NCBI GenBank assembly: GCA_938002665.1
Contig: CALLAE010000004.1
Location: 38,824-102,823 of the forward strand
Length of the DNA: 64,000 nt
Direction: 5' to 3'
From: an uncultured Saprospiraceae bacterium
GTDB lineage: Bacteria; Bacteroidota; Bacteroidia; Chitinophagales; Saprospiraceae
This document shows, in pieces, positions 42,360-46,556 of the stretch. A program made the position numbers and the translations under genes. How positions within the stretch are numbered: the first letter of the stretch is position 1; every line of letters begins with the position of its first letter. The notes below the pieces were generated by a model. It saw only the letters and a program-made list of their open reading frames with translations, made no database searches and was not told the origin of the DNA.

Positions 42360-43196
42360 TTAAGGGAATTTAGGAAATTTATCCCAGTCAGGATCTCTCT
42401 TTTCGAGGAAGGCATTTCTACCTTCTTCTGCTTCATCTGTCATATATCCTAGACGAGTGGCTTCTCCTGCAAAAATCTGTTGTCCTACCAGTCCATCATC
42501 TATGAGATTAAAAGCAAACTTTAGCATCTTGATAGCCATTGGGCTTTTCCCCAGTATCTCTTGTGCCCACTGATAGGCTGTATCTTCTAGTTCATCATGT
42601 GGAATAACAGCATTCACCATCCCCATCTCAAAGGCCTCCTGAGCAGAATAATTCCGACCTAAAAAGAAAATCTCCCTCGCTCGCTTTTGTCCGACTTGTC
42701 TAGCAAGGTAAGCAGAACCATAGCCAGCATCATAGCTAGCTACATCAGCATCTGTTTGCTTGAAAATAGCATGCTCTTTACTTGCTAGTGTCAGATCACA
42801 GACCACGTGCAAGCTATGTCCTCCGCCCACTGCCCAGCCCGGTACTACAGCAATAACTGCCTTATTCATAAATCGTATCTGACGCTGAACCTCTAGAATA
42901 TTCAACCTAGAAATGCCATCAGTTCCTTTATAACCCGTCTTGGCTCTGACTCGCTGATCCCCGCCTGAACAAAAAGCATAGATGCCATCCTTGGGAGAAG
43001 GTCCTTCCCCAGAAAGTAATACGACTCCTATACTTCTATCTTCCCGTGCATCATGAAAGGCCTCCAGCAGCTCCGATACTGTCTGTGGTCTGAAAGCATT
43101 TCTTACCTCTGGTCTATTGAAGGCGATACGAGCCACACCATGACACTTCTTGTAAGTAATGTCTTCATATGCTTTAGATGTTTTCCATTCTATCAT
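42360..43196 (-). CDS. menB: 1,4-dihydroxy-2-naphthoyl-CoA synthase
   Basis: ARIAFNRPEVRNAFRPQTVSEL, FCSGGDQ, GWAVGGGHSLHVVCDLTLAS, DADVASYDAGYGSAYLARQVGQKRAREIFFLGR. Confidence 0.96.
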   Translation of the reverse strand: MIEWKTSKAYEDITYKKCHGVARIAFNRPEVRNAFRPQTVSELLEAFHDAREDRSIGVVLLSGEGPSPKDGIYAFCSGGDQRVRAKTGYKGTDGISRLNILEVQRQIRFMNKAVIAVVPGWAVGGGHSLHVVCDLTLASKEHAIFKQTDADVASYDAGYGSAYLARQVGQKRAREIFFLGRNYSAQEAFEMGMVNAVIPHDELEDTAYQWAQEILGKSPMAIKMLKFAFNLIDDGLVGQQIFAGEATRLGYMTDEAEEGRNAFLEKRDPDWDKFPKFP

Positions 43197-43216
43197 TTAT
43201 AGCTTTTATCTGATTT

Positions 43217-44377
43217 CTATATTAGGCCAGTGGCTTTTTCTAAATAATGATACTCTATCCCAAACTCCTTTTTTAGTGCTGCAATCTGGGCTAGTATCTG
43301 TTGTTTTGCTTTAGGCTTGTCTATTCTGACAGCTGTAATAAGCAAATTCTTTGGGGTATGTTCAGTAGATATAAACTCCATCACTTTTGTCTTGTACCCA
43401 TGATACTCTAAGATAAGCGCTCTTATAGTATCAGTGATGAGTTCAGCCTGCCGCTCTTTCAATATGCCATACTGAGTAACAGCTTGCATAGTCTCTTCTG
43501 CATGCATCTGTTTTCTTATCTGCTTATGACAACAAGGAGAGCAAACTATTAGTTGTGCCTTAGCTGCAAGCCCAGCCGCTATAGCATCATCTGTTGCTGT
43601 ATCGCAAGCATGTAAGGCTATCAAGACCCGGCAAGCACTTGCATCTATATCCGATATATAGCCTGACTGAAAACTTAATCTTTCAAAACCAAGTTCCTGA
43701 GCAAGTCTGTTACCATTAGCCACAAGTGCTTCTCTAAGTTCTATCCCTACAACCTTAACTTGATGTCCCAATGATTCAGTGAGATAGTCATAGAGTGCAA
43801 AAGTAAGATAGCCTTTACCACTACCCATGTCCATTATAGTGTAAGGACTAGTTAATTGTGCCGCTCTAATATCAGCTGCCAGTAATTCTACATACTTATT
43901 TATTTGCTTGTACTTTTTTTGTTTTGCAGATTTTATAATTCCATTTTCATTGGATATCCCCAATAAATTAAGGAAAGGACGACCCTTAGCTACTATTCTT
44001 TGTTTTCGCTTATCATTAGTTTTGCTACTTGCCCTTTTAATAATCGCTTGCGTGGTATCGATTTTTTTCGACTTAGGATTATACTGAGATATAGTATCAG
44101 TTCCTATTATAGTTATGTTTCTAAATCTGCCAGAAAGTTCTTCCTTGATTATATCACAAGCCTCTTCCAGATCGTAGTTTTTTGTAACATCTTTATTTGG
44201 GTAGCTGTAGACAAATTGAAGTTTCAATACCTTTTTGACAACAACGAGTTTAGCCTTTATTTTTTGATAAGGAACCTCAGTTGCTAGTGGACCAGATATG
44301 GTTATTTTAACCAAGGAGCTATCAGTGTAACTCTTTCTAATAATAGCTAGTAGATGATCCAGAGTCGCTGCGGTCAT
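43217..44377 (-). CDS. Class I SAM-dependent methyltransferase
   Basis: YTIMDMGSGKGYLTFALYDYL, LIALHACDTATDDAIAAG, CSPCCHKQIRKQM. Confidence 0.85.
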   Translation of the reverse strand: MTAATLDHLLAIIRKSYTDSSLVKITISGPLATEVPYQKIKAKLVVVKKVLKLQFVYSYPNKDVTKNYDLEEACDIIKEELSGRFRNITIIGTDTISQYNPKSKKIDTTQAIIKRASSKTNDKRKQRIVAKGRPFLNLLGISNENGIIKSAKQKKYKQINKYVELLAADIRAAQLTSPYTIMDMGSGKGYLTFALYDYLTESLGHQVKVVGIELREALVANGNRLAQELGFERLSFQSGYISDIDASACRVLIALHACDTATDDAIAAGLAAKAQLIVCSPCCHKQIRKQMHAEETMQAVTQYGILKERQAELITDTIRALILEYHGYKTKVMEFISTEHTPKNLLITAVRIDKPKAKQQILAQIAALKKEFGIEYHYLEKATGLI

Positions 44378-46104
44378 TTGACATTAGTTTGGAGAGGGTC
44401 TATCGGTCTACAAATGATAACCGAGTTACTGCTATGTATGAGCTCTACTGCCGCGTGCACATTAACATGATGCTTGTCCAATTCCTTTAGTAATCCAGAT
44501 TTCTGCAAGCTATCTCTAACATTGCCTACCGCTCCACACATGTGCAGTTCTATTCCTTTCTTCTTAAGATCTTCATCCAGTTCTTGGAGCATATGCATGG
44601 CTGTACTGTCTATATCACTGATCTGAGTACCGTCTAGTATAACATACTTAACTTGCTCAAAATGGCTGGCTATTTTTTCATAGACAGAGTCTTTGAAATA
44701 AGCAGAATTTCCAAAAAACAACTGGTTCTCAAATCTCAAGATTACAGTATTAGGCAATTCCTCTGCTTGATCAAAACGAGACAAGTTTTTATAATACCGC
44801 GTTCCTGAAATGTTCCCCAGTTCTGCCATCGTAGGGTTAGCACTTTTATAAAGAACTAGTAGGATAGAGAGTATCACCCCGCATATTACACCAGGCTCAA
44901 TACCTAAAATTAAGGTGGCAATGAAAGTAACAGCCATCATGTAGAAGTCATTCCTGTTTGTCTCCCAAAGGTATCTCGCTTCCTTGTAGTCAAAGAGGCT
45001 GAGCACAGCTAATAAAATGATTGCGGCCAGAATGGTTTTGGGTAGATAATAGAATAGAGAGGTTAGAAATAACAAAGTGATGGCTATCATTATCGCTGTG
45101 ATAACACTTACTAGTTGAGTTCTACTGTTACTATTACTGTTTATAGCAGACCTAGAAAAGCTCCCTGAAGTAGGAAGAGCCTGAAAAAAAGAACCACTTA
45201 TTTTCGCTAAGCCTAGAGCAATTAGCTCCTTGTCTGCATTGACAGAATGATCTTTGTGTTTTGCTTCTAAAGCTTTAGCTATTCCTATACTTTCTACTAT
45301 CCCGATCAGCGTAACAGTCAGCACTGTAGGATATAGCACCTTCAGAGTAGCAAGGGAAAAATCTGGAACTATAAAAGCAGGAAGGCCTTTAGGAATATTT
45401 CTTACAAGCTCTACTCCTTTACTTTCTAAATTAAAAAAATAGCTTACGAGTATTCCTACCACAACAACGATAAGAGGTCCCGGTATCTTTTTGCTTATTT
45501 TTTTTAATATAATCAAACTAGCTAAGGCACTCAGGCATATGAATGTTGTAATCCAATGTATACTTCCTAAGGATCCACATGCCGACAGCAAATTTGTTAC
45601 AGTATCTGGGCAATTAGTCATTTGTAGACCTAGAGCATCCTTAAGCTGAGAAATAACTATAATAATAGCTGCAGCTGAAGTAAAGCCAGCGGTAACAGGA
45701 TGTGAAAGAAAATTGGCCAAAAAGCCCATTCTAAAGAAGCCTAATAACAGCTGAAAAACACCAATAAGCAAACCAGCCGTAATGACGTAGGAAATATAAA
45801 GTTCAGAGCCTGGCTCTGCTAGATTACTCACACCTGCTAGAATAAGTAGTGCACTTACTGCAACCGGACCCACCGAGAGTTTTGTAGAAGTAGCAAACAA
45901 TGCATAGACAACAAGAGGGAGGAGCGAAGCATACAAACCATATATAGGTGGCATACCTGCCAGTAAGGCATAAGCCATGCTTTGAGGAATAAGAACTGTC
46001 CCTATTGTAAGGCCTGCAAATAAGTCCGCACGAAATGCCTTACCATTATAGCCAGAAAAAGAATCTAAAAGAGGAATGTATTTATTGATACCTAGTATTT
46101 TAAT
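44374..46104 (-). CDS. SulP family inorganic anion transporter with STAS domain; N-terminus extended past the called ATG, candidate ATT start
   Basis: Called ORF starts inside the conserved motif; upstream in-frame codons give ...YIPLLDSFSGYNGKAFRADLFAGLTIGTVLIPQS-MAYALLAGMPPIYGLYAS with no ATG/GTG/TTG. Confidence 0.85.
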   Translation of the reverse strand: MKILGINKYIPLLDSFSGYNGKAFRADLFAGLTIGTVLIPQSMAYALLAGMPPIYGLYASLLPLVVYALFATSTKLSVGPVAVSALLILAGVSNLAEPGSELYISYVITAGLLIGVFQLLLGFFRMGFLANFLSHPVTAGFTSAAAIIIVISQLKDALGLQMTNCPDTVTNLLSACGSLGSIHWITTFICLSALASLIILKKISKKIPGPLIVVVVGILVSYFFNLESKGVELVRNIPKGLPAFIVPDFSLATLKVLYPTVLTVTLIGIVESIGIAKALEAKHKDHSVNADKELIALGLAKISGSFFQALPTSGSFSRSAINSNSNSRTQLVSVITAIMIAITLLFLTSLFYYLPKTILAAIILLAVLSLFDYKEARYLWETNRNDFYMMAVTFIATLILGIEPGVICGVILSILLVLYKSANPTMAELGNISGTRYYKNLSRFDQAEELPNTVILRFENQLFFGNSAYFKDSVYEKIASHFEQVKYVILDGTQISDIDSTAMHMLQELDEDLKKKGIELHMCGAVGNVRDSLQKSGLLKELDKHHVNVHAAVELIHSSNSVIICRPIDPLQTNVK

Positions 46105-46556
46105 TATCCTGAAGTATGATCAGAAACAATCAGCCACTTACCATCTATTTTGTTCCATAACAAATTGAAATGACCACTGGGACTATCATTATCTCTATGA
46201 AGCGTATATTTTCCAATCATATAAGCTACATCAGAAGAGAGTACTCTGAGTTCTATAACCTCAAAATTCAATTTACCCATTGCTGCTGTATCTGGATAGC
46301 TTTTTTTGTAATTAGCCAATGTATTAGACCATCCCCGTGTTACACCTTTTTTACCGATGAATGAAAGTGCTTCACTATTCCAGTAACCATTCATAAACTC
46401 ATCAATATCTCCTCGGTTCCAGGCCTTTTGCTGTTCTGTTAATACAGATTTAATGATCCTTGCTTCCACTACCTCATCAAATTTTATAGATTTAGATGTA
46501 GAACAAGCTGATAAACAGCAAATTACAGATAAGATAAAGTAAATATTAGCTCTCAA
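46104..46556 (-). CDS. SnoaL/DUF4440-like lipoprotein (TTG start as called)
   Basis: QQKAWNRGDIDEFMNGYWNSEALSFIGKKGVTRGWSNTLANYKKSYPD; lipobox LSACS. Confidence 0.85.
   Translation of the reverse strand: MRANIYFILSVICCLSACSTSKSIKFDEVVEARIIKSVLTEQQKAWNRGDIDEFMNGYWNSEALSFIGKKGVTRGWSNTLANYKKSYPDTAAMGKLNFEVIELRVLSSDVAYMIGKYTLHRDNDSPSGHFNLLWNKIDGKWLIVSDHTSG

What the first reader, a model, noticed from the sequence alone, without database searches (positions are those of the whole stretch)
45979..46104. SulP transporter with no ATG/GTG/TTG before its conserved N-terminus: candidate ATT start overlapping the upstream stop
The called start (ATG at 45978) is inside the hallmark SulP segment. Reading the minus strand upstream gives KILGINKYIPLLDSFSGYNGKAFRADLFAGLTIGTVLIPQS-MAYALLAGMPP, clearly native SulP sequence, so translation must begin earlier. 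From the in-frame TGA at about 46122-46120 to 45978 there is no ATG, GTG or TTG. The codon at 46104-46102 is ATT, and its A is the last base of the upstream gene's TAA (TAATT), the same geometry as a coupled TAATG junction. ATT would give fM-KILGINKYIPLLD. Rare ATT initiation is known (for example infC) and is self-limiting, so this could be a low-expression or regulated start, or an ATG-to-ATT mutation.
Basis: partly seen in the sequence, partly recalled or inferred. Interest (0 to 1): 0.6.

Follow-up and report, generated by a model that had tools for sequence, protein, structure and literature searches.

The report
SulP transporter gene lacking normal start
A bacterial anion-transporter gene has no ATG, GTG or TTG where its protein must begin, and distant relatives lost theirs independently, so this transporter family seems to tolerate or favour weak start signals that gene finders miss.

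Summary
The SulP frame is open from the TGA at 46122-46120, and it has no ATG, GTG or TTG for 46 codons before the called ATG at 45978, which lies inside conserved SulP sequence. It is not a lone sequencing error. The closest orthologue (another species of the genus, 60% identical) has the same upstream gene and also lacks a canonical start. Across 139 homologues, 9 lack one, against 7 of 574 control genes; these 9 need five origins on a tree. In 8 of the 9 a codon one base from ATG (ATT, ATC, CTG, ACG) followed by AAA/AAG sits where others have their start. One Flavobacteriaceae clade keeps CTG-AAA in all four genomes seen. Best explanation: near-cognate initiation, in the window most likely at ATT 46104-46102, by termination-reinitiation at the upstream TAA, giving low, coupled SulP output. 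ATT has the best start context, but ATA 46107 (the position of the ATG in two sister species) and ATC 46089 are not excluded. AUU and AUA starts are a known kind (infC, S. aureus cvfC1 and ccpN). Their recurrence in one transporter family of Bacteroidota, a phylum that lacks Shine-Dalgarno signals, appears new. There is no protein-level evidence.

The parts
44374..46104 (-). SulP-family anion transporter (Sulfate_transp + STAS), CDS if translation starts at ATT 46104
   Evidence: Pfam PF00916 E=4.8e-107 and PF01740; TIGR00815 sulP above cut-off; open frame 581 codons
46102..46104 (-). ATT, favoured near-cognate start; overlaps the upstream TAA by 1 base; followed by AAA
   Evidence: best context score of all candidates, 8.3 bits, 97th percentile of 197 homology-supported starts, above essentially all of 6423 internal Ile codons
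46105..46107 (-). ATA, alternative near-cognate start; positional homologue of the ATG that overlaps TGA in sister species G001 and G011 (-4 overlap geometry)
   Evidence: DNA alignment of the junction, codons; context 5.4 bits
46087..46089 (-). ATC, alternative near-cognate start, 5 codons before the conserved Pro; aligned in protein with ATT of G004
   Evidence: alignment, start-offset distribution, context 5.9 bits
46096..46098 (-). ATA, less likely alternative start
   Evidence: context 4.5 bits
46120..46122 (-). in-frame TGA that limits the SulP frame upstream
45976..45978 (-). ATG called as start by ORF finding; inside conserved SulP sequence (LIPQS-MAYALLAG)
46104..46556 (-). upstream gene: DUF4440/SnoaL-like lipoprotein (lipobox LSAC), TTG start; its TAA stop overlaps ATT
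   Evidence: PF14534 E=6.5e-10; same gene directly upstream of sulP in G004, G001, G011
43217..44377 (-). downstream gene: class I methyltransferase; its ATG overlaps the SulP stop (ATGA), so SulP lies in a chain of overlapping genes
   Evidence: PF13679; junction overlap also in G004, G011, G001
42360..43196 (-). menB, 1,4-dihydroxy-2-naphthoyl-CoA synthase, next gene of the same strand
   Evidence: TIGR01929 above cut-off
46101..46132 (-). possible RNA hairpin that would hide TAA/ATT until the upstream gene is translated; weak evidence
   Evidence: MFE fold, z=-1.42, 16 of 200 shuffles as stable; not seen in G004, G011, G001

Best explanation
The gene is a functional SulP-family anion transporter whose translation starts at a codon one base away from AUG, most likely AUU at 46104-46102 (giving fMet-KILGINKYIPLLD...). 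Ribosomes that finish the DUF4440 lipoprotein at UAA 46106-46104 reinitiate on the overlapping AUU with fMet-tRNA. The A-rich context helps, because there is no Shine-Dalgarno signal in this phylum. The weak codon keeps SulP output low, ties it to translation of the upstream gene and makes it sensitive to IF3. Shown by sequence: absence of any canonical start, coding constraint upstream of 45978, a sister species with the same lack, overlapping-gene geometry on both sides of sulP, and recurrence in the family. Inferred: that initiation occurs at a near-cognate codon, which one, the reinitiation, low output and IF3 sensitivity. My split: ATT about 0.5, ATA 46107 about 0.2, ATC 46089 about 0.15, other about 0.15.
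For: No ATG/GTG/TTG for 46 codons. N-terminal segment under coding constraint and part of the conserved fold region. Closest orthologue G004 (L005) reads TAA ACC GCA ATA ATT AAG AAG TAC TTT CCC with no canonical start for 40 codons, after the same upstream gene. G001 and G011 have an ATG overlapping the same gene's TGA. Upstream and downstream junctions overlap or nearly so in the relatives, so sulP sits in a coupled chain. ATT has the strongest start context. Family-wide: 9/139 homologues without canonical start against 7/574 controls, and non-ATG in 45/139 against 60/574; five origins on the tree; near-cognate codon + AAA/AAG at the start position in 8/9 of these against 18/119 of canonical homologues, p=9e-6; CTG-AAA kept in four Flavobacteriaceae genomes where the sister has ATG-AAA. 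SulP paralogues of the genus use ATG in 19/20. Literature: conserved AUU and AUA starts in S. aureus cvfC1, ccpN and infC lower output (PMC13009471); -4 and -1 overlaps mark termination-reinitiation, and ATT is cited there as the 7th best start codon at about 0.3% of ATG (PMC10666635).
Against: No protein, ribosome-profiling or transcript data. ATT lies 10 codons before the conserved Pro, where only 1 of 81 single-start homologues begins; offsets 5-9 are usual, which favours ATC 46089 or ATA 46098. G004's ATT has a mediocre context (0.9 bits) and is not aligned in protein with ATT of the window. ATT is expected to be very weak, so the gene could be nearly silent. The genome is a 180-contig draft of 87.5% estimated completeness, and a base error in it cannot be excluded directly.
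Confidence: 0.75

Rival explanations
1. Near-cognate initiation, but at ATA 46107-46105, the direct descendant of the sisters' ATG: one G-to-A change turned GGATGA into GGATAA and altered the start codon and the upstream stop together.
For: Junction alignment places this ATA on the ATG of G001/G011 in the same frame; -4 overlap geometry kept; AUA starts are known in S. aureus infC and ccpN.
Against: Context 5.4 bits against 8.3 for ATT; 11 codons before the conserved Pro, a rare offset; which state is ancestral is not established.
Confidence: 0.2
2. Near-cognate initiation at ATC 46089-46087, the homologue in protein alignment of ATT in G004, 5 codons before the conserved Pro.
For: Offset P-5 is among the commonest (15 of 81); fMet-NKYIPLL resembles MKQYLPIL of relatives; aligned with G004 ATT-AAG-AAG-TAC.
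Against: Worse context than ATT; 14 bases beyond the upstream stop, less favourable for reinitiation.
Confidence: 0.15
3. Start-codon loss or sequence error: the gene is dying or misread and the true start is a canonical codon.
For: Draft genome; single-genome data for the window itself.
Against: The 581-codon frame is intact with conserved N-terminus, and the sister genome at 60% protein identity lacks a start too; four other independent lineages as well.
Confidence: 0.06
4. Translation starts at ATG 45978 and the protein is genuinely shorter.
For: It is the first canonical start.
Against: It would remove the first 43 residues or so, which are conserved and under coding constraint, and part of the Sulfate_transp domain; homologues with solved structures align from residue 8-30.
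Confidence: 0.03
5. SulP is made as a fusion with the upstream lipoprotein by frameshifting or stop readthrough.
For: The frames abut.
Against: The relation of frames differs between species: -1 in the window, in frame with an intervening TAA in G004, separate ATG in G001/G011. A lipoprotein signal would export the N-terminus (inference from the lipobox). No slippery motif seen.
Confidence: 0.02

Closest known systems
infC AUU start of E. coli (and AUA start of S. aureus infC)
   Same: Third-base near-cognate start that lowers initiation and is discriminated by IF3 (PMC2268962, PMC13009471)
   Different: infC is autoregulated by its own product; sulP is a transporter with no such loop. infC in this genus appears to start with TTG
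S. aureus cvfC1 (AUU) and ccpN (AUA) conserved non-canonical starts
   Same: Conserved near-cognate starts that limit output, supported by comparison across species (PMC13009471)
   Different: Those have strong extended Shine-Dalgarno motifs; Bacteroidota mRNAs naturally lack them (PMC6847099). Here the start is at a gene overlap, and the codon changes between lineages (ATT, ATC, CTG, ACG)
Termination-reinitiation at -1 (TAATG) and -4 (ATGA) gene overlaps
   Same: Same geometry: TAATT or ATAA (PMC10666635)
   Different: Canonical overlaps use ATG, GTG or TTG
SulP/SLC26 family (TIGR00815); DauA and BicA subfamilies
   Same: TIGR00815 above cut-off; Sulfate_transp plus STAS
   Different: DauA and BicA equivalog models match far below their cut-offs, so the substrate is not assigned

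Membership tests
SulP (TIGR00815) transporter | Full-length match above curated cut-off | tested here: met
   490.8 bits against 380.45
SulP (TIGR00815) transporter | Sulfate_transp core plus C-terminal STAS domain | tested here: met
   PF00916 29-398 and PF01740 452-555
BicA bicarbonate transporter | NF050096 cut-off | tested here: not met
   153.9 bits against 880
DauA C4-dicarboxylate transporter | NF008660 cut-off | tested here: not met
   212.9 bits against 614
Genes with a near-cognate (non-NUG) start codon | No ATG/GTG/TTG between in-frame stop and conserved N-terminus | tested here: met
Genes with a near-cognate (non-NUG) start codon | Conservation of the lack in a related species | tested here: met
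   G004; different codon context
Genes with a near-cognate (non-NUG) start codon | Initiation at that codon shown by protein or ribosome data | not testable with these tools
   no such data held
Translationally coupled overlapping gene pair | Overlap of -1 or -4 with the upstream stop | tested here: inconclusive
   met if ATT or ATA 46107 is the start; not met if ATC 46089 is; G004's candidate is 9 bases beyond the stop
Translationally coupled overlapping gene pair | Dependence on upstream translation | not testable with these tools
   needs a reporter
IF3-autoregulated infC-type start | Product is IF3 | tested here: not met
   product is SulP

The most novel reading that the evidence does not exclude
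One transporter family in Bacteroidota is under repeated selection for sub-optimal start codons. Lineages independently replace AUG by UUG/GUG and then by AUU, AUC, CUG or ACG, using start-codon strength (possibly read out through IF3 and upstream-gene coupling) as the main control of SulP dose in bacteria that lack Shine-Dalgarno tuning.
Probability: 0.4. Interest if true: 0.68.

Novelty: new variant of a known kind. Interest (0 to 1): 0.5.

Why it matters
Near-cognate starts in bacteria are known for a handful of genes, mostly regulators with strong Shine-Dalgarno signals. Here a transporter family in a phylum without such signals lacks a canonical start in five separate lineages, including a clade that keeps CUG. 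That gives natural replicates to test how AUU, AUC, AUA and CUG starts work without Shine-Dalgarno pairing, and whether start strength sets transporter dose. It also shows a systematic annotation gap: gene finders limited to ATG/GTG/TTG cut the N-terminus off these proteins, as happened here.

Tried and rejected
Sequencing error or private mutation: set aside because of G004 and four other lineages. Internal start at 45978: set aside by conservation and constraint. Fusion by frameshift or readthrough: set aside because the frame relation differs between species. All SulP paralogues using weak starts: no, 19/20 in the genus have ATG. infC as an ATT precedent in this genus: no, readable infC genes start with TTG. 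A conserved RNA hairpin over the start: weak in the window (z=-1.4), absent in relatives. A sigma-70-type promoter scan gave only about chance numbers and does not cover the Bacteroidota promoter. One search read minus-strand loci on the wrong strand and is superseded. Literature searches found no paper joining 'sulfate permease' with 'non-canonical start codon', nor 'CUG start codon' with 'Bacteroidetes'; the library holds open-licence papers only.

Full report
The observation. The SulP gene on the minus strand has no ATG, GTG or TTG between the in-frame TGA (46122-46120) and the ATG at 45978. The codons are TCA TAC TTC AGG ATA ATT AAA ATA CTA GGT ATC AAT AAA TAC ATT CCT and so on. The upstream ORF, a DUF4440 lipoprotein, ends with TAA at 46106-46104, so ATT at 46104-46102 shares one base with it. 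The protein is SulP: TIGR00815 at 490.8 bits against a cut-off of 380, with Sulfate_transp and STAS domains. BicA and DauA equivalog models fail their cut-offs, so the substrate is left open.

The stretch before 45978 is translated. It aligns with orthologues residue by residue, belongs to the domain model from residue 29, and differs from the nearest orthologue with a coding pattern (0.39, 0.21 and 0.61 differences per codon position, against 0.34, 0.18 and 0.61 in the rest).

The nearest relatives. Of 14 genomes held for the genus, four carry this orthologue at 57-100% identity, all behind the same DUF4440 gene. In G001 and G011 the ATG overlaps that gene's TGA (GGATGA). In the window the same place reads GGATAA, so the homologue of their ATG is ATA 46107-46105, and the base that differs also changes the upstream stop from TGA to TAA. 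G004, the sister of the window's protein on the tree (60% identity), reads TAA ACC GCA ATA ATT AAG AAG TAC TTT CCC and has no canonical start for 40 codons. Two diverged genomes with intact genes make a base error or a dying gene unlikely. In all four species sulP also overlaps the next gene, a methyltransferase, by ATGA, TTGA or a longer overlap, so it sits in a coupled chain. In some sister genomes (G002, G007, G009) the DUF4440 gene has no sulP behind it; in G007 and G009 the methyltransferase follows it directly.

Which codon. A start-context matrix from 197 homology-supported starts of four genomes of the genus, tested against 6423 internal Ile codons, gives ATT 46104 8.3 bits (97th percentile of true starts), ATC 46089 5.9, ATA 46107 5.4 and ATA 46098 4.5. 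On the other side, ATT stands 10 codons before the conserved proline, while single-start homologues mostly begin 5 to 9 codons before it, and the protein alignment pairs G004's ATT with the window's ATC. I therefore hold ATT as the best single candidate, about one in two, within a well-supported claim of near-cognate initiation.

The family. Using 139 homologues from Saprospiraceae-like and other Bacteroidota genomes and a few others, and 574 other genes from the same stretches with the same rule, 9 SulP genes and 7 controls had no canonical start before the aligned N-terminus. At least 4 of the 7 controls are alignment overruns with a normal start a few codons on. ATG was absent in 45/139 SulP against 60/574 controls. 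Some rows are near-copies (134 distinct). The nine fall in five places on the tree: window plus G004; L011 plus L123; L142; L173, L186 and L188; L194.

In eight of the nine, a codon one base from ATG followed by AAA or AAG lies 5-11 codons before the proline: ATT-AAA (window), ATT-AAG (G004), ATC-AAA (L142), CTG-AAA (L011, L173, L186, L188), ACG-AAA (L194). The same motif occurs in 18 of 119 homologues that have a canonical start (p=9e-6). The Flavobacteriaceae clade is the clearest case: L173, L186, L188 and, from a further search, L326 all have CTG-AAA exactly where the sister L157 has ATG-AAA. CTG is only 5-6% of leucine codons in three of these genes and 17% in L186. L173 and L186 have an ATG or TTG two codons after the proline that could serve instead; L188 and L326 do not. 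L327 repeats L188 and is not counted. SulP paralogues of the window's genus use ATG in 19 of 20, so this belongs to the one clade.

Mechanism. Bacteroidota mRNAs lack Shine-Dalgarno sequences, and initiation there depends on upstream adenines and low structure (PMC6847099). Overlaps of -1 and -4 are the hallmark of termination-reinitiation, and ATT is cited as the seventh best start codon, at about 0.3% of ATG in E. coli (PMC10666635). Raised IF3 inhibits non-canonical starts and reduces reinitiation (PMC2268962). In vitro, AUU on the CAU anticodon is a weak pair disfavoured as IF3 rises (PMC10158994). In S. aureus, conserved AUU (cvfC1) and AUA (ccpN, infC) starts lower output (PMC13009471). 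The model is that ribosomes leaving the DUF4440 gene reinitiate on the near-cognate codon at its stop, giving low, coupled and IF3-sensitive SulP. Coupling, output level and IF3 dependence are inferred. A hairpin over the stop and start is not significant and not conserved.

Verdict. Observation confirmed. This is a new variant of a known kind: near-cognate starts, recurrent in a transporter family of a phylum without Shine-Dalgarno signals. Everything rests on sequence comparison.

Noticed in passing
L142:1368-1457 (+), EamA-like gene upstream of sulP in Saprospiraceae UBA7328: A second gene of that genome also has no ATG/GTG/TTG before its conserved N-terminus (TAA ATT ATC AAT AAA AAT AAA GAA CTT), so near-cognate starts may not be confined to sulP there.
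   Followed up: no
L250, minus strand, ORF offset 2496 (G002, same genus): An ABC-transporter ATPase frame (ISEPIIQIKDYSLDL...) has its first ATG at codon 34, after conserved sequence begins; one hit only.
   Followed up: no
L212, L213, L214, L220 and other infC loci: infC in this order is read with TTG as the likely start in the genomes where the N-terminus could be located, a conserved weak start but not ATT.
   Followed up: partly
window 46104-46556 (-): The DUF4440 lipoprotein upstream has no ATG start either; its first canonical start is TTG 46556, while G004's orthologue has ATG.
   Followed up: partly
window 42360-46556 (-): sulP is present between the DUF4440 gene and the methyltransferase/menB pair in some species of the genus and absent in others (G007, G009), so it was inserted into or lost from an existing operon.
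   Followed up: partly
L186, L188, L326, L095, L094, L103 upstream of sulP: Where sulP stands alone, a TAnnTTTG-like promoter element lies close before the start, suggesting very short leaders (seen by eye).
   Followed up: no
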